DNA of 64,000 nt from Candidatus Woesearchaeota archaeon (GTDB taxonomy: Archaea; Nanobdellota; Nanobdellia; Woesearchaeales; JACPBO01): positions 86,844 to 150,843 of the forward strand of contig JAUSCS010000009.1 of NCBI GenBank assembly GCA_030651135.1, written 5' to 3'. The position numbers and the translations under genes are program-made. Each line of letters begins with the position of its first letter. Position 1 is the stretch's first letter. Below the pieces are notes generated by a model. The model was not told the origin of the DNA. It saw only the letters and a program-made list of their open reading frames with translations, and did not search any database. Below are positions 10,265 to 52,871 of the stretch, piece by piece.

Positions 10265-12892
10265 TTACCAATCTTCCCAGGAAGATGCTGTGCCGCCAGT
10301 GGTTGTTGTGCCTGTTTCTGTTCCTTTCAGCACTATGCCGCTTGCTTCAGGTATTGTGTTGCATGTCATGTCTATGCCGCCAGATTCGAATACGAGGCAG
10401 ATTGTGTTATAATAATTAAAGCTGTATTTTACGATAATAGCATCTCCGGTCAGAGAGAAAGTTTGGCCGCTCTCATTGATCATCCGCGATCCATTAAAAA
10501 CAGGCTTTTTCATGCCAGATCCCATGACATAGATGTTGAACTTTGTGTTGTCTTCCACTGCCTTGACATAAGCTGAGATCTTGTAAAGGTATTGGACTAC
10601 ATTCTGCGTTATGTTTATTGTTTCATTCTCAAACGGAACTGGCGGAGACCTTTCTGCTGATATTGTAGCAGCTGCCTGGAAAACTCCAGGTGCAGTTTCA
10701 ACCATTGCAACATTTGACGGAACGCTTTCAATATTTGACTTGCAGATCTCGCTTGTCCAGTATTCTGTGCCAAGATAAGCGCTTGCAAATGCCTTGTCAA
10801 CAGACTCTCTCCATTCATTAAGCTTGTCATCACCCCAGATCAAGGATGAGAATCCCGACAATCCAGAGAATTTTGTGAGGGCAAAGTCAAGGCGACCGAA
10901 GAACTGCTGTGTTTTAAACTGGGTTACTTCAGATTTGATGTATTTGAGATCATTGTCATTACAAGTTCCGCCATTACAAGTGTATGTTTTAGTTTTCTCA
11001 TCATATTTATATAGTGAGTTACCAAGCCCATCTGTTACCTCATAAGAAGCCATATTTCCGTTTTCAGTGGTTACAACAATCTGTTTATTTTCACTGTAAG
11101 TTGTATCCACAGTTGTATATGAAGTAACTTGATTTTGGTCATCACGCGTATAGGTCAGTTTTGTTCTTGATAGAATCTGCCCAGTCGAGTCTGTTGTCAC
11201 TGTCGCCAAATCTTCAATAAGATTTTTGTTATTATATTCAGTTGTTCTTTTAGTTGTTACACCGTTCTCTGTAGTGCTTGATGTGGTGGTTACAACACCA
11301 TTAACTACGCCAGTAACCTCCTCATTATTATAGTAAAGAACATCCTTGTCCTCTTCTTTTTTAGTGCTAAATTTAGAATAATCGGTGCTGTCCCAATCAA
11401 CCACGTTGGTAATTTTGTTAGAAGTATCAAAATGAAATTTCAGTGGTGCAACTGCCTGCGTCTGCACTGCAGGCTCTGCTACTCCAGACGCGGTTATTGG
11501 TGGTTCTTGAATTGGCAGACTGCTTGCTGGCAGTGCTATCAATCCTGCAGGAGGTTCAGTTGTACTCGTACCTAAAGTAGGATTATCATACTGCCCTGTA
11601 GCAGGATTATAATCCCATCCTGTAGCAAGATCTGTATATATGCCTGTAGTTACATCATAACTCCATCCTGTAGCAAGATTGATAAATGTGTTCGTTTTAA
11701 AATCATAATCCCATCCTGTTGGTGTAGGTGTTTGTGGTTCTACTTCTGTTGGTGGCAGTGTTACTTCTAGAGGTGATCCCAGTACTTCTATTGACTGTAC
11801 ATTACTCATACCACTCACTGCTGTAGCACTGCTAACCCATTTTTGGTTTGTGTTATCCCACCAGTAAGATTTAGTTCCCGATATGCCATCCCACCAACTT
11901 CCTTCCTTATAGTAATTTATTGTGCCATCAGCGCTCTTTATAAAATAAGTTGCTCCTTCTGGTGGAACAATTGATGTTACTACTATTGGTGTGGTTGGTG
12001 CTACTTCTGCTGGTGGTGCTTCTGGTGCTGGTGGTGGTGCTATTGCATACTCCTCAGTAATCACTGTCCCGTCTGAATTGTAATGTACTGCCAGGCTAGC
12101 TCCAGTAGCTTGCACATCATACCGCCCATCTTCATAAGAAAAAACATAATAACCTTCAGCTATTTTATTGCCAGATGAGTCGTATAATACATCGTTGCCA
12201 TATGCAGTATCTTTCACACTATATCTGCCATCTTCATAAGAAAAAACAGAATAACCTTCAGCTATTTTATTGCCAGATGAGTCGTATAATACCTCTTTGC
12301 TATCTCCAGTAGCTTGCACACTATACCTCCCATCTAAATAATCACTAACAGAATAACCTTCGGCTATCTTTGTTCCATCTTTGTATAAAACTTGTCCTCC
12401 TTCTTCTATTTTAATATCATAACCTGATGTTGCCACGGAAACTGCTGGAGTTGTTTGTGCTGTTGCTTGTTGCGCGTTTAGATCTGCAATACTAGATACT
12501 ACATCATTGTAATATGGAAGTGTTGAAGAGGTCCCATAACCAGTTGCAGTTTTGCCTTCAGCTGTTGCAGTCACTTCATAAGCGCCTGTGTTTGAATTCC
12601 ATACCGCTTCAGAATATGTCGCTGGTGGCATGTTTGTTCCATCTCCATATTGTTTCACCCAATTATTTTGAGCATAACTTTTAGCTGCTCTCTCCGCCAT
12701 CAATTTTTGTTGAGTGTCACTTGGTTCAGCATAAGTTATAGTGGTTGTCACCATCCCCGTCACTTTCTCAAGCCCAGCCGCTCCTGTTGCTTTGTTCTCC
12801 CTCTGTACTGCGCTGAACAGGCCGAATGTAAATATAGCTGTAACTATTAAAACCATTAAAAGCGCTGCTCCGACTGATGGGTTTTTGCTCAT
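10265..12892 (-). CDS. Repeat-containing surface protein with KNPSxGAA N-terminal anchor (875 aa)
   Basis: The N-terminus (MSKNPSVGAALLMVLIVTAI...) is a single hydrophobic anchor followed by QRENKATGAAG. Residues about 155-280 hold four tandem copies of a repeat of roughly 38 residues (VLYDSSGNKIAEGYSVFSYE then DGRYSV). Around residue 395-445 there are three copies of a GWDYNPATGQY-type repeat. Proline/threonine-rich linkers separate them, and the C-terminal 250 residues include NESGQTF and CNTIPEAS segments. It should lie outside the cell. It follows the DUF1016-type gene by one base. Its first 47 residues are nearly identical (43/47) to the stub at 13858-14007. Function unknown. Confidence 0.82.
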   Translation of the reverse strand: MSKNPSVGAALLMVLIVTAIFTFGLFSAVQRENKATGAAGLEKVTGMVTTTITYAEPSDTQQKLMAERAAKSYAQNNWVKQYGDGTNMPPATYSEAVWNSNTGAYEVTATAEGKTATGYGTSSTLPYYNDVVSSIADLNAQQATAQTTPAVSVATSGYDIKIEEGGQVLYKDGTKIAEGYSVSDYLDGRYSVQATGDSKEVLYDSSGNKIAEGYSVFSYEDGRYSVKDTAYGNDVLYDSSGNKIAEGYYVFSYEDGRYDVQATGASLAVHYNSDGTVITEEYAIAPPPAPEAPPAEVAPTTPIVVTSIVPPEGATYFIKSADGTINYYKEGSWWDGISGTKSYWWDNTNQKWVSSATAVSGMSNVQSIEVLGSPLEVTLPPTEVEPQTPTPTGWDYDFKTNTFINLATGWSYDVTTGIYTDLATGWDYNPATGQYDNPTLGTSTTEPPAGLIALPASSLPIQEPPITASGVAEPAVQTQAVAPLKFHFDTSNKITNVVDWDSTDYSKFSTKKEEDKDVLYYNNEEVTGVVNGVVTTTSSTTENGVTTKRTTEYNNKNLIEDLATVTTDSTGQILSRTKLTYTRDDQNQVTSYTTVDTTYSENKQIVVTTENGNMASYEVTDGLGNSLYKYDEKTKTYTCNGGTCNDNDLKYIKSEVTQFKTQQFFGRLDFALTKFSGLSGFSSLIWGDDKLNEWRESVDKAFASAYLGTEYWTSEICKSNIESVPSNVAMVETAPGVFQAAATISAERSPPVPFENETINITQNVVQYLYKISAYVKAVEDNTKFNIYVMGSGMKKPVFNGSRMINESGQTFSLTGDAIIVKYSFNYYNTICLVFESGGIDMTCNTIPEASGIVLKGTETGTTTTGGTASSWEDW

Positions 12893-22435: not shown

Positions 22436-22516
22436 TGTTAATACTAACAGAAAATGTTGTTATTGTTAACAGAATAGTATGTTATGATTAACGGAAAAAT
22501 ATGTTAACATTAACAG
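22436..22516. promoter_or_regulatory. Array of four 15-bp palindromic operators at 22-bp spacing
   Basis: Imperfect palindromes TGTTA-n5-TAACAG start at 22436, 22458, 22480 and 22502: TGTTAATACTAACAG, TGTTATTGTTAACAG, TGTTATGATTAACGG and TGTTAACATTAACAG. The spacing is exactly 22 bp each time, about two DNA turns, so all sites face the same side of the helix. The last one abuts the BRE/TATA of the operon that starts at 22552. Cooperative binding of a dimeric regulator is the natural inference. Confidence 0.75.
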
Positions 22517-22530
22517 AAAGATTTAAATAT
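22514..22530 (+). promoter_or_regulatory. BRE/TATA promoter of the nucleotidyltransferase operon
   Basis: ACAGAAAGATTTAAATA lies 22-38 bases before the ATG at 22552, consistent with a leaderless transcript. Its upstream edge overlaps the fourth palindrome. Confidence 0.7.
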
Positions 22531-22551: not shown

Positions 22552-22863
22552 ATGACGACAGAAGAAGAGCATGAAACCATTCAGGATGAGCTCGAAGAAG
22601 ATCTGAATGAAAAAATCAGCAGAGGCATTATAGGGAAGCGGCAGAAACTAATCGGCTTTTCAACATCAGAAGCGTCAGCCAATCTTTTTGCCAGATTGTT
22701 GCATAAACTAAACTTGATCAGCCCGGGTTTTAATGTGAATCATAGGTTTTTTGCATCGGTGGAGAGGGCAAAAGAAAAGTTTGGTTTTGAGTTTCAAAAC
22801 AAAGCTAAAATTCTTGAGCTTTTGGTAAAGCAGGAGAAGTACAGGGACATGCTGTGCTACTGA
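22552..22863 (+). CDS. Acidic-N-terminus protein of unknown family, interrupted by an in-frame TGA
   Basis: The 103-residue frame begins with a strongly acidic helix (MTTEEEHETIQDELEEDLNE) and continues with a basic, helical segment (RGIIGKRQKLIGFSTSEASA). It stops at TGA 22861-22863 after MLCY. The same frame stays open beyond that codon for 35 more codons, to a TGA at 22969-22971 that overlaps the start of the nucleotidyltransferase gene. The original gene therefore was probably 139 residues. It is the first gene behind the four-palindrome control region and by position could be the regulator or antitoxin partner of the downstream enzyme. I do not recognise the family. Confidence 0.6.
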   Translation: MTTEEEHETIQDELEEDLNEKISRGIIGKRQKLIGFSTSEASANLFARLLHKLNLISPGFNVNHRFFASVERAKEKFGFEFQNKAKILELLVKQEKYRDMLCY

Positions 22864-22971
22864 AAAAACAAAGATGAGTCCCTTGCAAAAGAAGCCATAG
22901 GAAATTACTTCAATTTAAAAGAGCTGATTGAAAATGAGCTGGAAAAGAGCGGTAAAAATGAAGAGGAATGA
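22861..22971 (+). other. In-frame continuation of the 22552 gene beyond an internal stop
   Basis: After the TGA the frame reads KNKDESLAKEAIGNYFNLKE and continues in a helical, charged style like the preceding part. It ends in a TGA overlapping the next gene's ATG at 22958 by 14 bases. A nonsense mutation, assembly error or recoding could each explain this. No selenocysteine element is apparent. Confidence 0.6.
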
Positions 22972-23602
22972 AATATTTTCATACATTGGTGATTTTTTAT
23001 CTGTTTTGTATTTTAAAAAGGATTTTTTAGATAAAATAAATAATGTCATATTGTTTGGTTCTGTCGCCAGAGGAGATTTTGATAAGGACAGCGATATTGA
23101 TCTTTTCATTGATGTAAAAGACAGAATAGAAGTAAAAAACACGGAAGAGATTGTAGACTCGACAATAAACGAGTTCGAAATAAAAGCAAGGGAAGTCTGG
23201 CATATACGCAATATCAAAAACCCAATAAAATGCGTTATCGGGGCACTAAAGGACGAAAAGTGGAGGGAGCTTAAGAAAGAGATTCAGTCTTACGGCATTG
23301 TGCTTTATGGCAGCTTCAAAAGCGGTTATGAGAATCTTGAATCGCACAGCTTGTTCGAATACTCGCTTAAGGATTTCAAGCAGAAAGACAGGGTTGCTTT
23401 CTTGAGGGAGTTGGTAGGATATAAATCGAGGAAAAAGAAGAAAACATACGTTCATGAGGGTCTGATTAAAAAAATAAGCGGCGTAAAACTGGAAAATAAC
23501 AACATAATAGTTCCGTCAAAAGAAGCCGTTGTTGTGCAAAAATTTTTTACAAAGAAGAAAGTAACACCCAAGATTACAGAGATTTGGGTCAGAGAAAAAT
23601 GA
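22958..23602 (+). CDS. MNT-type nucleotidyltransferase
   Basis: The 214-residue protein has the minimal nucleotidyltransferase motif NNVILFGSVARGDFDKDSDI followed by DLFIDV near residues 29-54: GS-x(10)-D-x-D. The remainder is helical and basic, ending with a wHTH-like region. I place the start at the ATG 22958, inside the tail of the preceding frame, rather than at the upstream TTG. The stop overlaps the DUF4416 gene in an ATGA. The upstream palindrome array suggests tightly controlled expression, as in toxin-antitoxin operons. Substrate unknown. Confidence 0.8.
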   Translation: MKRNEIFSYIGDFLSVLYFKKDFLDKINNVILFGSVARGDFDKDSDIDLFIDVKDRIEVKNTEEIVDSTINEFEIKAREVWHIRNIKNPIKCVIGALKDEKWRELKKEIQSYGIVLYGSFKSGYENLESHSLFEYSLKDFKQKDRVAFLRELVGYKSRKKKKTYVHEGLIKKISGVKLENNNIIVPSKEAVVVQKFFTKKKVTPKITEIWVREK

Positions 23603-24114
23603 AGATTATCACAACAGCCCATCCGGCAAAGCTTCTCATCGGCATCATGTTCTCGGATAAGAAGCTCTATAGCAATGCCATGAATGATCTAAAATCCAGA
23701 TTCGGCGATATTGAAGCTGAAAGCAAGGAATATGAATTCTCAAAGATAACTGATTATTACGCAGATGAAATGGGCAGCAGGATTTTAAAAAAATTTTTAG
23801 TTTTTAAGAATAAAATAAATAAAGATGATCTGGCAGGAATAAAATTATTCACAATAGAAGTAGAAAACAAATATAAGAGATACAAAAAAAGAAAAGTAAA
23901 CATTGATCCGGGCTGCCTGACAAATGATTCCCTAGTCCTGGCTTCTTTCAAGAAAGGCACAAATTACAAGGAGCAGATAAGCGAGAGGGTTTATGCGCAC
24001 AAAGTGCTGGAATTCAGGAAAAATGAAGCAATCATGTTTTGGCATACGTTTCCGGATTATAGGGAGAAAAAGAATCAGGATTTTATCAAGAAGATAATCA
24101 CATCTTTAATATGA
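23599..24114 (+). CDS. DUF4416-family protein
   Basis: This 171-residue protein shows the pattern I associate with DUF4416: AKLLIGIMFSDKKLYSNAMN near the start, then FGDIEAES, ITDYYADEMG, FTIEVENKY and VNIDPGCLTNDSLVLAS. The family is conserved but its biochemical role is not established. ATG 23599 overlaps the stop of the nucleotidyltransferase (ATGA), so it is co-translated with it. The association with a nucleotidyltransferase operon is unusual as far as I know and may only reflect local operon assembly. Confidence 0.75.
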   Translation: MKIITTAHPAKLLIGIMFSDKKLYSNAMNDLKSRFGDIEAESKEYEFSKITDYYADEMGSRILKKFLVFKNKINKDDLAGIKLFTIEVENKYKRYKKRKVNIDPGCLTNDSLVLASFKKGTNYKEQISERVYAHKVLEFRKNEAIMFWHTFPDYREKKNQDFIKKIITSLI

Positions 24115-24117
24115 GAC

Positions 24118-24963
24118 TTAAACACGGCCTTTTCTATCTTTCTTTTCAACATAATTTATGCTTGGATCGAAAAAGTGGAAATTAAGTATGCCTTTTTCAG
24201 TCTTGGCAGGGTTGGTTTTTGCATAGTACATTGCTTTATCACCATGATCTTTAAGCTCTTCCTTATTCTCGGCATCTTTTTCGTAGAATGACATTCCCAA
24301 GCTGACGCTAACTGCTGCTTGCTTATCTGGGTGTTCAAGCCCAATCTTCTTCTGCACATAACTGTTGATCTTGGCGGTCAGGTTCATCAGAAAATCATTT
24401 GGGTTTTGCATATTAAAGGGATCAAATACAAGTATAAATTCATCGCCGCCCACTCTTGCCTTCAAATCTGTATCCCTCGTATATTCTTTAAGTGCGCCAG
24501 CAACGTATTTTAGCACATCATCGCCGAATTTATGGTCATATTTGTCATTTGCTTCTTCTTTAAATCTATTTATATCAATAAACACCAATGCAACATACTT
24601 GCCCAATGCTTTGTATCCTTCTCTATTTGCTCTCTTTATGCACCTCTCAATGCCGCTGTTATACCCTTTTACATTTGTCAATCCTGTAAGCTCATCAGTT
24701 GTAGTTGATTCCTCTATTTCATTTGAGGCTTCCTTTTCTTTACCTATGATATAGCCTTCCAGCCCTCTTTCCAGAATTGGATGAATATCTCCTATAAGAG
24801 CGTCATTTTTTATTGTTTGGCACAGTCTGAGTAAATCAAAATTGCTGTTTAATTGCTTCTGCCACTTTAAAACATCATCATAGCCTATAGGCTTCTGATC
24901 TCTCTTTAATTTTTCATATTCCCCGATTATTACACTTAACCTGTCGTCTGTATCTTTATCCAT
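24118..24963 (-). CDS. GGDEF-domain diguanylate cyclase (cytosolic)
   Basis: After an 80-residue helical N-terminus without membrane segments comes a complete GGDEF domain: TTDELTGLTNVKGYN (88-102), FIDINRFKEEAND (128-140) and RVGGDEFILVF (170-180). An RxxD inhibitory-site motif (RDTD, 163-166) stands exactly five residues before GGDEF, as in product-inhibited bacterial cyclases. This predicts synthesis of cyclic di-GMP from two GTP. Such enzymes are rare in Archaea. A BRE/TATA (GAAAGATTTATATAG on the minus strand, about 24990-25005) precedes it. No EAL or PilZ protein is in the window. Confidence 0.87.
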   Translation of the reverse strand: MDKDTDDRLSVIIGEYEKLKRDQKPIGYDDVLKWQKQLNSNFDLLRLCQTIKNDALIGDIHPILERGLEGYIIGKEKEASNEIEESTTTDELTGLTNVKGYNSGIERCIKRANREGYKALGKYVALVFIDINRFKEEANDKYDHKFGDDVLKYVAGALKEYTRDTDLKARVGGDEFILVFDPFNMQNPNDFLMNLTAKINSYVQKKIGLEHPDKQAAVSVSLGMSFYEKDAENKEELKDHGDKAMYYAKTNPAKTEKGILNFHFFDPSINYVEKKDRKGRV

Positions 24964-26067: not shown

Positions 26068-27429
26068 ATGAAACTAGTCACAATCGGCTATGACAATTTC
26101 CTGAAAAAAGATGTAAAAAAAATAAACTTTGAAAGCAAGGATCTCCCTAAAGTCCAGCTCTTCAACACAGCCGACGTAATAGCAGGCAATCCTAATTCTA
26201 ACATTGCAATAGCATTTGTTTACAACTGGAAAACAGATGTTGCCCCTGAAAATATAAGAAATTTGTTTCAAAGGCTCTCAAATTATGCTGCGCTGACTGG
26301 CTACTGGCGCACTACAAATGGGGCAAGGTATGCATTTGCAAATATCCTTTCAAACCCGAACATAAACAAGCTTCTATTGCTTGTTTTTGAAAGCGAAGAT
26401 AATGGCCATCTCTTAGTCGATGCCTTGAGAAACTTCTGGAAAAACGGCATTAATGACAACAATGTTATAATCAGCTCAAAAGCGCCGAATCCAAAATTCG
26501 AGCAGGTGCCGAAAGAAGCATTGGAAAGAATAAGGCAGCAGGCAGATTTACTGATTTTAAAGAATATAAAAAATAATTATAATGAAATTGAATCCTTATT
26601 GAAGGAATTAATCCAAGAGCCGGAAAATGCAATCAGCTTAAATGAATTTCAAAAATTAAATCTTGAATTCCACTCAAACACTATAAAAAACGATATGTTT
26701 TATGACGATGGAGCAAGGTTTGAAGAGCCTTTTATTCTGGATCTTTCAAGCTCTGCCCAGAATGTCAAGTTTGAGCAGAAAAACCTCATTGCATCTGTAG
26801 GCCAGTCAGTGCAAGCCAATAACCTTAAAGATGCCTTGGAAAACACAGTGGCGTTTATCTTAAAAAACGGCTCTACAATACTCGATCAAAGAAACATCAT
26901 AACAATTGAATGCAGGTCAATAGCAATAACCATTTTATGCCCTCTTGAAAAAATCCCGGATAATTTTTCAAAAGAATACCTGGACAAATACCTTGATGAA
27001 TTCCTCAATGGCAGGGGAGAAAAACTCGACGAATTCGTCTATACATACCATGAGAGGATTTTTAAAAAATGGGGCAACCAGCCTGAAAAAATCATTGCTC
27101 TGCTAAAGCAAAATCCGAATACAAGAAGGGCATTAATAACATTGTGGGATCCGAATGATGATCTGGGAAATGAAAGCCCTCCGTGCCTTGACTTCATATG
27201 GGCTGTTATAAGGGACAATGCTTTGGAATTCCATGTCGTCTATAGAAGCCACCATATTGCAACTGTCACAGAAGATGGAAAATTATTGCCCGGAGAGGGC
27301 GCTTTTGTCCCGAATATTTATGCAATTGCTTCACTGCAGCAGAATATGGCAAAAGCTTTAAATATCAAATCTGGTCCATTGGTTTTGACAGACTTCAGCG
27401 GCCATTTGTATGTGAGCAGAATAAGGTAA
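26068..27429 (+). CDS. Thymidylate synthase-like protein with N-terminal extension
   Basis: The C-terminal part carries thymidylate synthase signatures: NPNTRRALITLWDPNDDLGN (arginine pair binding phosphate) and SPPCLDFIWAVIRDN with the catalytic cysteine at about residue 373, then HVVYRSHH. The first 200 residues form a separate domain resembling the pterin-binding DUF4346 region found with archaeal thymidylate synthases. It should methylate dUMP to dTMP using a folate-like or methanopterin cofactor. It is followed two bases later by dTMP kinase. A GGGGGG-type leader sequence precedes the ATG at 26068, and a TATA (ACATTTAAATATAG) lies about 40 bases upstream. Confidence 0.8.
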   Translation: MKLVTIGYDNFLKKDVKKINFESKDLPKVQLFNTADVIAGNPNSNIAIAFVYNWKTDVAPENIRNLFQRLSNYAALTGYWRTTNGARYAFANILSNPNINKLLLLVFESEDNGHLLVDALRNFWKNGINDNNVIISSKAPNPKFEQVPKEALERIRQQADLLILKNIKNNYNEIESLLKELIQEPENAISLNEFQKLNLEFHSNTIKNDMFYDDGARFEEPFILDLSSSAQNVKFEQKNLIASVGQSVQANNLKDALENTVAFILKNGSTILDQRNIITIECRSIAITILCPLEKIPDNFSKEYLDKYLDEFLNGRGEKLDEFVYTYHERIFKKWGNQPEKIIALLKQNPNTRRALITLWDPNDDLGNESPPCLDFIWAVIRDNALEFHVVYRSHHIATVTEDGKLLPGEGAFVPNIYAIASLQQNMAKALNIKSGPLVLTDFSGHLYVSRIR

Positions 27430-44172: not shown

Positions 44173-46326
44173 ATGTGTTTCAAAATGTTAAACAAAAGAG
44201 GCAGGTTTCTGAGCATTTTGGTTTTAATTTTCTTGGTTCTTCTTACGGTTGCTTATGCTGGCCAGGCTGCAATCAATTCGGGCAATGACAGCAAATGCAG
44301 TATAAAGGATTTTCCAGGGCTATTCAAATACGATGAAGGGAAAAACAAGAACTTAGCAACTGCGTTATATTCAATTAGCATTTCTTTCAAGGAACAAAAT
44401 GTAAAAATCACTCCGAAATTATTGGCTGCGGTAATGGCAACGCTTGAAAAGGAAGTTGGCGCGGAAAACTTTCTGCCGGTTGAGGAAAATGGAGATTATG
44501 GGCAAGGAGGCGACTGCACTTATAAGATAAGCGGAAAATGCAGAAAAAATTCTTACGATGGAGGAGTGGATTATAAGGGAAGAGGTTATATTCAGATAAC
44601 GCACAAGGAGAATTATGCAAAGTACTGCGGCCAGGAGTGTGTTGGAAATTCAACTCCGGAACTGGATGTATGCGGCTGCAAAAACAAGAAGCACTGCGCC
44701 CAAACTGACGAGAGTTTATGCCCGCAGCTCAAGGCGCTGCGTCCAGAGTATGCTGGAAAAATATTTGCCTCATATTATGTCGGAACTAAATACAAAAACA
44801 GCAATCTTGTCCAGCTGGCAGAAAAAGAGGATTACCTGACGATTGGCGAAAAGATAAATGGCGGGCAGGGCTACGCTGATGACTTTGCCAAAAAAGCAGG
44901 CAATTATCTCCGGCTATTTAAATCAGACAAGAAAACCTCACAGTTGCTGGGTTGCCTGGACATCAGCACAGAAGGATACTGCGGTGAGAATTCAAATTGC
45001 GAGCCAGGAAAAGAATGCAACTTGAGCACTCACACATGCCAATACAAGCAAGCGCCTGAAGTGCCGGGCCCAATAGGATGCCCGAATGCATATTTATTTT
45101 CGTGCAATGACCCAGTAAGTTATGTTATCAAAAAAATTATGCCTGTCATTTTCAATAAAATTGTGCGCGAATGCTCTGAAGGATACATTTACGGAAAAGA
45201 CAGGCGTTGTCATTCAGAATGCGGCACTGGCGGAACATACTGCGCAGGAAATTCAGAATGCTTTAATGGCAATTGCTTTGATTGCGATATAGGCTATTAC
45301 TTAGAAACAGATGGATTTTGTTATCCAGAACCTGCAACCACCTGTGACCCTGGGTATATTTTAGGCAACGATGGCTTCTGTCATCCAGAATGCGGCAACA
45401 GCGGAACATACTGCATAGGAAATTCACAATGCTACAGCGGACAATGTGTAGGCTGCGACCCAGGATACTACCTAGCAATAGATGGGTATTGTTATCCTGA
45501 AAATGGCGGCGAAGATACAATCTGCCCTGAAAGCTACATCTACGGAGACGATGGATTATGCTATCCTGAAGATGGAGGTACTTGCGATCCAGGATATTAC
45601 CTAGCAATAGACGGATTATGCTACCCAGAAAATGGAGGTGATTGCGAACCGGGATATTACCTAGCAATAGACGGATTATGCTATCCTGAAAATGAAGGAT
45701 CAAGCTGCGATCCAGGATACATCCCGGGAGCAGATGATTACTGCCACCTAGAATGCGGCAACAGCGGAACATACTGCCTTGGAGATTCAGAATGCTTCAA
45801 CAACCAATGCACAGCCTGCGATCCAGGATATTACCTAGCAATAGACGGATTATGCTATCCTGAAGGAGGTACTTGCGAACCAGGCTATTACTTTGCAATA
45901 GATGGATTATGCTATCCTGAAGATGGAGGTACTTGCGAACCAGGATATTACCTAGCAATAGACGGATTATGCTACCCAGATACTTCTTGTAATTTTGGGT
46001 ATATTTTAGGCGAGGATGGGTTATGCCACAAAGAATGCGGGATCAGCGACACATACTGCATAGGCGATTCCACGTGCTACATGGGGCAATGCATTTCTTG
46101 TGAATCAGGTTATTATCTTGCAACAGATGGGTATTGTTATCCTGAAGGAGGCTCTTGTGAATCAGGTTATTATCTTGCAACAGATGGGTATTGTTATCCT
46201 GAAGGAGGCTCTTGTGAATCAGGTTATTATCTTGCAACAGATGGATACTGCTACCCAGAGAATGGAGGATTAAGTTGCAATCCAGGTTATTATCTTGCAA
46301 CAGATGGATACTGCTATCCGTACTGA
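44173..46326 (+). CDS. Secreted GH19-like muralytic/chitinolytic enzyme with Cys-rich repeat tail
   Basis: A signal peptide (LSILVLIFLVLLTVAYAGQA) leads to a domain of about 200 residues with the lysozyme-fold GH19 signature VDYKGRGYIQITHKENYAKY near residues 128-147, ATLEKEVGAENF before it (candidate catalytic Glu) and KINGGQGYADDF after it. This family cleaves chitin or peptidoglycan. From about residue 335 to the end are cysteine-rich repeats: eleven copies of C-x-PGYYLAIDG-x-CYP, one variant, and four longer units with CGNSGTYCIGNSQCYSGQC. The last repeats are almost identical in DNA. A second start at 44185 (MLNKRGRF) fits the promoter slightly better. The enzyme would act outside the cell, perhaps on a bacterial or host envelope. 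Confidence 0.8.
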   Translation: MCFKMLNKRGRFLSILVLIFLVLLTVAYAGQAAINSGNDSKCSIKDFPGLFKYDEGKNKNLATALYSISISFKEQNVKITPKLLAAVMATLEKEVGAENFLPVEENGDYGQGGDCTYKISGKCRKNSYDGGVDYKGRGYIQITHKENYAKYCGQECVGNSTPELDVCGCKNKKHCAQTDESLCPQLKALRPEYAGKIFASYYVGTKYKNSNLVQLAEKEDYLTIGEKINGGQGYADDFAKKAGNYLRLFKSDKKTSQLLGCLDISTEGYCGENSNCEPGKECNLSTHTCQYKQAPEVPGPIGCPNAYLFSCNDPVSYVIKKIMPVIFNKIVRECSEGYIYGKDRRCHSECGTGGTYCAGNSECFNGNCFDCDIGYYLETDGFCYPEPATTCDPGYILGNDGFCHPECGNSGTYCIGNSQCYSGQCVGCDPGYYLAIDGYCYPENGGEDTICPESYIYGDDGLCYPEDGGTCDPGYYLAIDGLCYPENGGDCEPGYYLAIDGLCYPENEGSSCDPGYIPGADDYCHLECGNSGTYCLGDSECFNNQCTACDPGYYLAIDGLCYPEGGTCEPGYYFAIDGLCYPEDGGTCEPGYYLAIDGLCYPDTSCNFGYILGEDGLCHKECGISDTYCIGDSTCYMGQCISCESGYYLATDGYCYPEGGSCESGYYLATDGYCYPEGGSCESGYYLATDGYCYPENGGLSCNPGYYLATDGYCYPY
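46090..46324 (+). repeat. Tandem coding repeat, C-terminal end of the GH19-like gene
   Basis: Units of 57 bases encoding CESGYYLATDGYCYPEGGS are repeated with almost no change, including two consecutive units that look identical. This suggests recent expansion and a site prone to length change. Confidence 0.8.
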
Positions 46327-52271: not shown

Positions 52272-52871
52272 ATGGAGACAGCAAAAACAACCAGCAGGAT
52301 TTTGAAATTAATATTCAAGGATTTTGCTACAAGGCATACTGTAACCACACTCTCAAAAGAAATAGGCATGAGCAGATGGGGTGTATGGAAGGTCCTTAGA
52401 AAACTCGAATCTGAAAAAATCCTTATCTTATCCCCTGTTGGCTCTGGAAAAACAAGCACCCATACAATCAGCCTGAACTGGGAAAATCCGATTGTTGAAA
52501 AAATGCTGGCCATGATCCTTACAGAAGAAACATTGAAAAATCAAAGATGGGTAAGCAGCTTTTCAGAGTTTGAGGGAAAAGCAAAATTCAGCATAATCTA
52601 TGGCGGCATTCTGAACAAGCCAAAAGAAGCGAATGACATTGATATAGTAAGCGTGATCTCAAATAGGAAAAACTTTATACAGATTGAGAAAATAACAGCT
52701 AATTTGCAGAAGACCCAGGTTAAGAAGGTCCATTCGTTAAATTTCACAGAAGCAGAATTCAAAAGTGAATTAAAAAAGCCAAATAAGGCGTTTATTGACG
52801 CTGTAAAAAAAGGAGTTGTATTATTTGGGCAGGACAGTTTCATCAGATTTATAAAGGGCTTGGCAAAATGA
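52272..52871 (+). CDS. Winged-helix / nucleotidyltransferase-fold fusion protein
   Basis: The 199-residue protein joins an N-terminal winged helix (TLSKEIGMSRWGVWKVLRKL near residues 34-53) to a C-terminal domain with YGGILNKPKEANDIDIVSVI near 118-137, an MNT-like GG...D-x-D pattern. The glycine-serine of classic enzymes is replaced by GG, so activity is uncertain. It looks like regulator and enzyme of a toxin-antitoxin pair in one chain. I start at the ATG 52272, not the upstream TTG at 52254, because it begins the folded domain. topA follows six bases after its stop. Confidence 0.75.
   Translation: METAKTTSRILKLIFKDFATRHTVTTLSKEIGMSRWGVWKVLRKLESEKILILSPVGSGKTSTHTISLNWENPIVEKMLAMILTEETLKNQRWVSSFSEFEGKAKFSIIYGGILNKPKEANDIDIVSVISNRKNFIQIEKITANLQKTQVKKVHSLNFTEAEFKSELKKPNKAFIDAVKKGVVLFGQDSFIRFIKGLAK

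What the first reader, a model, noticed from the sequence alone, without database searches (positions are those of the whole stretch)
22436..22530. Four palindromic sites at exact 22-bp intervals before a nucleotidyltransferase operon
TGTTA-n5-TAACAG-like palindromes start at 22436, 22458, 22480 and 22502, with GAAA following three of them. The 22-bp period puts all on one DNA face, and the last one touches the BRE/TATA. Such regularity implies cooperative filament-like binding by a dimer. The likely binder is encoded in the operon, but its first gene has no recognised HTH.
Basis: partly seen in the sequence, partly recalled or inferred. Interest (0 to 1): 0.68.

Follow-up and report, generated by a model that had tools for sequence, protein, structure and literature searches.

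The report
Self-regulating archaeal HEPN–MNT-like operon
Four evenly spaced mirror-image DNA sites sit just upstream of the promoter of an archaeal operon related to HEPN–MNT toxin–antitoxin pairs; comparison with over a hundred related loci suggests that an undescribed domain on the nucleotidyltransferase binds them to control its own gene, with each operon carrying its own version of the site.

Summary
The array is real: four 14-bp dyads, TGTTA-N4-TAACA (spacer 4, not 5), at exactly 22 bp, ending at the BRE/TATA, and unique in the genome. The operon is a diverged HEPN–MNT (type VII toxin–antitoxin-like) pair. Gene 1 is HEPN-like and carries an in-frame stop here. The MNT nucleotidyltransferase is intact and fused to a ~90-aa C-terminal domain ("C-dom") with no Pfam, NCBIfam or PDB match. 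I surveyed 116 C-dom proteins from related genomes. Their promoters often carry palindromic arrays with spacing mostly 21–23 bp and the nearest site centred 17 bp upstream of the TATA centre, but with very different palindrome sequences. MNT genes without C-dom in overlapping genomes show little more than chance. C-dom is the common factor: arrays also precede solo C-dom genes, and they persist where HEPN is deleted (same-genus G001) or broken. Operator similarity follows C-dom similarity best. I conclude that the operon product binds its own promoter through C-dom, most likely as an autorepressor. DNA binding and the sign of regulation are inferred, not shown. This would be a new variant of HEPN–MNT regulation.

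The parts
22436..22449 (.). operator site 1, TGTTAATACTAACA
22458..22471 (.). operator site 2, TGTTATTGTTAACA
22480..22493 (.). operator site 3, TGTTATGATTAACG
22502..22515 (.). operator site 4, TGTTAACATTAACA; centre 17 bp upstream of the TATA centre, the most common position in relatives
22516..22529 (+). BRE/TATA-like element GAAAGA-TTTAAATA
   Evidence: sequence; position relative to sites
22552..22971 (+). HEPN-like gene with an in-frame TGA at 22861-22863 inside the conserved RxxLxYG motif; the frame is otherwise open to 22971. Intact in most relatives
22958..23602 (+). MNT nucleotidyltransferase (GSX10DXD intact) fused to C-dom, 214 aa
23330..23599 (+). C-dom, residues about 125-214: candidate operator-binding domain, also found as a solo protein
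23599..24114 (+). DUF4416 gene, start overlapping the MNT stop codon (ATGA); probably co-transcribed, also in G001

Best explanation
The array is the autoregulatory operator of a HEPN-MNT-type operon. The MNT protein carries a C-terminal domain (C-dom) that, as a dimer, recognises the 14-bp dyad. Dimers on sites two helical turns apart sit on one face and probably cooperate. The promoter-proximal dimer abuts BRE/TATA and most likely blocks TFB/TBP, so the operon represses itself. Shown by sequence: the array, its fixed promoter position across relatives, its association with C-dom rather than with HEPN or MNT alone, and co-diversification of operator and C-dom. Inferred: DNA contact by C-dom, dimerisation, cooperativity, and repression rather than activation. 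In this genome the HEPN partner is broken while MNT-C-dom and the array persist.
For: Same-genus G001 lacks gene 1 but keeps all four sites at the same spacing, and its MNT-C-dom is under purifying selection relative to the window's (dN/dS 0.15 MNT, 0.12 C-dom). Arrays also remain where HEPN is largely or wholly lost (L089, L147) or broken by stops (window, L065, L112, L113). Solo C-dom genes carry the same TGTTA/TGTAA..TAACAGAAA sites (L051, L071, L083). Array score >=20 in 47/67 HEPN+MNT-C-dom promoters and 12/24 solo promoters, against 10/143 other upstream regions and 5/27 MNT genes without C-dom from overlapping genomes (Fisher p 3e-21 for HEPN+MNT-C-dom vs other regions, 1e-6 for solo vs other regions, 7e-6 for HEPN+MNT-C-dom vs no-C-dom MNT). 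Adjacent spacing 21-23 bp in 76 of 146; proximal site centre at -16 to -18 from the TATA centre in 33 cases (44 loci had a recognisable TATA), +16 in 11. Partial Mantel: operator~C-dom given HEPN r=0.24, p=0.0005; operator~HEPN given C-dom r=0.14, p=0.009; operator~MNT part given C-dom r=0.10, p=0.054. Paralogues within one genome mostly have different operators (G000, G057, G267).
Against: No binding data. C-dom has no detectable homologue of known fold, and its model is low-confidence. The Mantel difference is modest, and genes of one operon share history. In the window all sites lie upstream of BRE, a position also used by archaeal Lrp-type activators (PMC2995911). Some C-dom promoters, mainly divergent solo ones, show no significant array with this scoring, and five of 27 no-C-dom MNT promoters also reached the threshold.
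Confidence: 0.72

Rival explanations
1. Same binder (C-dom), but the array activates or switches the promoter, as with Ss-LrpB/Ptr2-type upstream sites: the site abutting BRE recruits TFB/TBP, and further sites add cooperativity or repress at high concentration.
For: All four window sites lie upstream of BRE/TATA, with the proximal site next to BRE; 15 of 44 relatives with a recognised TATA have upstream sites only. Archaeal Lrp activators use a dimer site just upstream of BRE (PMC2995911).
Against: 29 of 44 relatives also have sites downstream of the TATA, near the start of transcription, which favours occlusion. The related Shewanella MNT antitoxin represses its promoter (PMC4621449).
Confidence: 0.2
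2. The HEPN protein, or only the HEPN-MNT complex, is the DNA binder.
For: Antitoxin/toxin complexes often co-bind operators; operator similarity keeps a weak link to HEPN after C-dom is taken out (r=0.14, p=0.009).
Against: Array kept where HEPN is deleted (G001, L089, L147) or truncated, and present at solo C-dom genes. The HEPN model is a plain four-helix bundle.
Confidence: 0.05
3. A host regulator encoded elsewhere (for example Lrp-like) binds the array.
For: Two-turn spacing and BRE-proximal position are typical of archaeal Lrp operators (PMC2995911).
Against: The array is found nowhere else in the genome; C-dom paralogues in one genome mostly have different operators; MNT genes without C-dom lack arrays beyond background; operator similarity follows C-dom similarity.
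Confidence: 0.04
4. The array is a neutral tandem repeat without function.
For: Exact 22-bp period with similar flanks (GAAA) suggests the array grew by tandem duplication.
Against: Dyads, spacing and TATA distance are conserved while sequence diversifies; in G001 the dyads are nearly unchanged.
Confidence: 0.02

Closest known systems
Type VII HEPN-MNT (HepT-MntA) toxin-antitoxin systems
   Same: Adjacent HEPN and MNT genes; MNT motif GSX10DXD; predicted folds match HEPN and MNT structures (8xeo, 8xeh, 7bxo, 1wol). The Shewanella MNT SO_3165 binds and represses its own promoter (PMC4621449).
   Different: HEPN lacks RX4HXY (it has RxxLxYG); HEPN gene first, whereas MNT almost always comes first in classical pairs (PMC3710099); the MNT carries an extra C-dom, whereas SO_3165 has no recognised DNA-binding domain.
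Archaeal Lrp-type autoregulators (Ss-LrpB, Ptr2)
   Same: Several palindromic sites spaced two or three helical turns apart, proximal site next to BRE, autoregulation (PMC2995911).
   Different: No Lrp or HTH domain was recognised by Pfam in the proteins of this operon; operator sequence differs from operon to operon.
Pyrobaculum paREP1 HEPN-RHH fusions
   Same: A HEPN-family protein carrying a DNA-binding domain (PMC2701414).
   Different: There the RHH domain is on HEPN, with no MNT partner; here a different domain is on MNT.

Membership tests
Type VII HEPN-MNT toxin-antitoxin | MNT catalytic motif GSX10DXD | tested here: met
   Exact in the window; GSX9-11DXD in 71 of 73 MNT-C-dom proteins
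Type VII HEPN-MNT toxin-antitoxin | HEPN motif RX4HXY / Rx4-6H | tested here: not met
   0 of 68 have Rx4-6HxY; 50 of 68 have [RK][DEN]x[LVIM]xYG
Type VII HEPN-MNT toxin-antitoxin | HEPN fold of partner | tested here: met
   AF2 pLDDT 92 on an intact ortholog; the first eight Foldseek hits include mostly HEPN proteins, probability 0.77-1.00 but E 0.04-0.44
Type VII HEPN-MNT toxin-antitoxin | MNT gene in 5' position | tested here: not met
   HEPN-like gene is first in the window and in relatives
Type VII HEPN-MNT toxin-antitoxin | HEPN toxicity and its AMPylation by MNT | not testable with these tools
   needs experiments
Archaeal Lrp-family regulator | Lrp HTH + RAM domains in the binder | tested here: not met
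   No Pfam match for C-dom

The most novel reading that the evidence does not exclude
C-dom is a previously undescribed DNA-binding domain, widespread in the window's archaeal phylum (hits in about 46% of genomes sampled). It gives HEPN-MNT modules and solo proteins operon-specific autoregulation, and its binding specificity has diversified so that paralogues in one cell are largely insulated from each other.
Probability: 0.6. Interest if true: 0.78.

Novelty: new variant of a known kind. Interest (0 to 1): 0.66.

Why it matters
How HEPN–MNT modules control their own transcription has been unclear: Makarova et al. 2009 suggested that a DNA-binding component might be encoded in trans (PMC2701414), and SO_3165 binds its promoter without a recognised DNA-binding domain (PMC4621449). 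This points to a dedicated domain fused to the antitoxin, testable with one protein and one promoter. It also offers a natural set of tens of protein–operator pairs with different specificities in poorly studied archaea, and promoters whose architecture is conserved while the operator sequence is not.

Tried and rejected
RNA element: no Rfam match, and all four sites lie upstream of the TATA. Genome-wide regulon of the TGTTA..TAACAG motif: only background outside the array. Plasmid or phage origin of the protein: no full-length match. Viral contigs gave only two partial MNT matches. Known fold or family for C-dom: none in Pfam, NCBIfam, PHROGs or PDB profile search; scattered single-member hits judged chance. 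Structure of C-dom: shallow alignment, block pLDDT about 37-74 over that region; secondary structure beta-alpha-(low-confidence stretch)-beta-alpha-beta, so a ferredoxin-like or hairpin DNA-binding fold is only a guess. Recoding of the in-frame TGA was considered; an ordinary nonsense mutation is simpler, because most relatives have an intact HEPN and others have stops elsewhere or deletions; an assembly error is not excluded. C-dom columns that vary with half-site bases were computed but phylogeny confounds them, so they are not used.

Full report
Observation. In the 1.4-Mb genome the perfect TGTTANNNNTAACAG motif occurs three times, all here, and near-matches are at background level. A pair at 22-bp spacing with up to three mismatches occurs only here, with no control hit. 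The units also share GAA(A) after the dyad; the fourth copy of this is the BRE itself, which suggests that the array grew by tandem duplication of the promoter-proximal unit (inference).

The operon. Gene 1 (22552) has no Pfam match. Its frame is interrupted by a TGA at 22861 inside a motif (RxxLxYG) conserved in relatives. An intact ortholog folds confidently as a four-helix bundle (pLDDT 92) whose best structural matches are HEPN proteins. Gene 2 (22958) is an MNT nucleotidyltransferase with GSX10DXD intact; its N-terminal part resembles MNT antitoxins by structure. Its last ~90 residues (C-dom) match nothing in Pfam, NCBIfam, PHROGs or PDB. A DUF4416 gene overlaps its stop codon.

The organism. 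The genome is of the same order as a MAG labelled Candidatus Woesearchaeota: L063 shares its core sequence with L091 of G189, a same-order genome.

Which protein is the binder? In same-genus G001 gene 1 is gone, yet the four sites remain with three substitutions and identical spacing, and the MNT–C-dom is 92% identical. dN/dS between the two MNT–C-dom genes is about 0.15, so it is maintained. HEPN is largely or wholly lost in L089 and L147 and interrupted by stops in L065, L104, L112 and L113; arrays are visible upstream of all of these except perhaps L104, which scored at background. C-dom also occurs alone in ~90-aa proteins, and several of these genes have the same TGTTA/TGTAA..TAACAG-GAA sites upstream (L051, L071, L083). 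C-dom is the component common to all.

Generality. C-dom matches were found in 147 of 353 genomes of the order and 129 of 279 sampled across the phylum. Of 116 unique C-dom proteins parsed, 68 had the HEPN-like gene plus MNT–C-dom, 27 were solo and 21 were other MNT-like or unassigned. I scored each promoter for two similar dyads at 17-48 bp. A score of 20 or more was reached by 47/67 HEPN+MNT–C-dom promoters and 12/24 solo promoters, against 10/143 other upstream regions in the same loci. MNT genes without C-dom from overlapping genomes reached it in 5/27, with a mean equal to background; Fisher tests. The 21 'other' loci scored poorly at least in part because their operon starts further upstream: several have another upstream gene, in part HEPN-like by eye, and some of those have palindromes before it (for example GTTGTA..TACAAC at L159 in the own genome, not scored).

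Anatomy. In the 63 loci with a high-scoring array, adjacent sites are 21-23 bp apart in 76 of 146 cases, and 33-34 bp in 14, mostly across the TATA. Where a TATA could be recognised (44 loci), a site is centred at -16 to -18 from the TATA centre in 33 cases, and 29 loci also have sites downstream of it. The window (-83, -61, -39, -17) is the upstream-only form. Operator sequences differ widely between operons, and paralogues in one genome mostly have different operators: mean operator distance within genomes 0.46, between 0.48. Operator distance correlates best with C-dom distance, also after controlling for HEPN or for the MNT part; the margin is modest.

Mechanism. I infer that C-dom dimers bind each dyad, that neighbouring dimers two turns apart cooperate, and that the proximal dimer blocks BRE/TATA, giving autorepression. 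Upstream-only placement would also suit Lrp-type activation (PMC2995911), so the sign of regulation is less certain than the identity of the binder.

Comparison. The pair works like a type VII HEPN–MNT system but fails two of its usual features: the HEPN RX4HXY motif, described in PMC7641770, and the MNT-first gene order, described in PMC3710099. I therefore call it HEPN–MNT-like. Makarova et al. 2009 noted the missing DNA-binding component of HEPN–MNT (PMC2701414); the Shewanella MNT binds its promoter without a recognised domain (PMC4621449). Literature searches turned up no description of an MNT fused to a DNA-binding domain of this kind; subscription papers and preprints were not searched.

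Limits. No experiment; C-dom fold unknown; the promoter score uses an arbitrary threshold and AT-rich sequence raises its background; starts were assigned automatically; the survey was seeded by C-dom, so HEPN loss without MNT loss is expected to be over-represented, although the hits of the independent HEPN search had an MNT beside them.

Noticed in passing
window 24118-24963 (-): A GGDEF (diguanylate cyclase) protein with an intact GGDEF motif, next to the operon, in an archaeal genome where c-di-GMP signalling is not generally expected (Pfam E 5e-28).
   Followed up: no
window 26068-27429 (+): A 453-aa protein combining an MtrA-like N-terminal domain with a thymidylate synthase C-terminal domain.
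   Followed up: no
L159 (G000:C9 about 52389-52610): Another C-dom operon in the same genome, with a different HEPN-like upstream gene and repeated GTTGTA..TACAAC palindromes before it.
   Followed up: partly
G422:C12:49234-49980: A 281-aa frame with two tandem C-dom matches.
   Followed up: no
window 45553-46319 and 12101-12367: Long tandem repeats (57-60 bp and 102 bp units), probably inside repeat-rich surface proteins.
   Followed up: no
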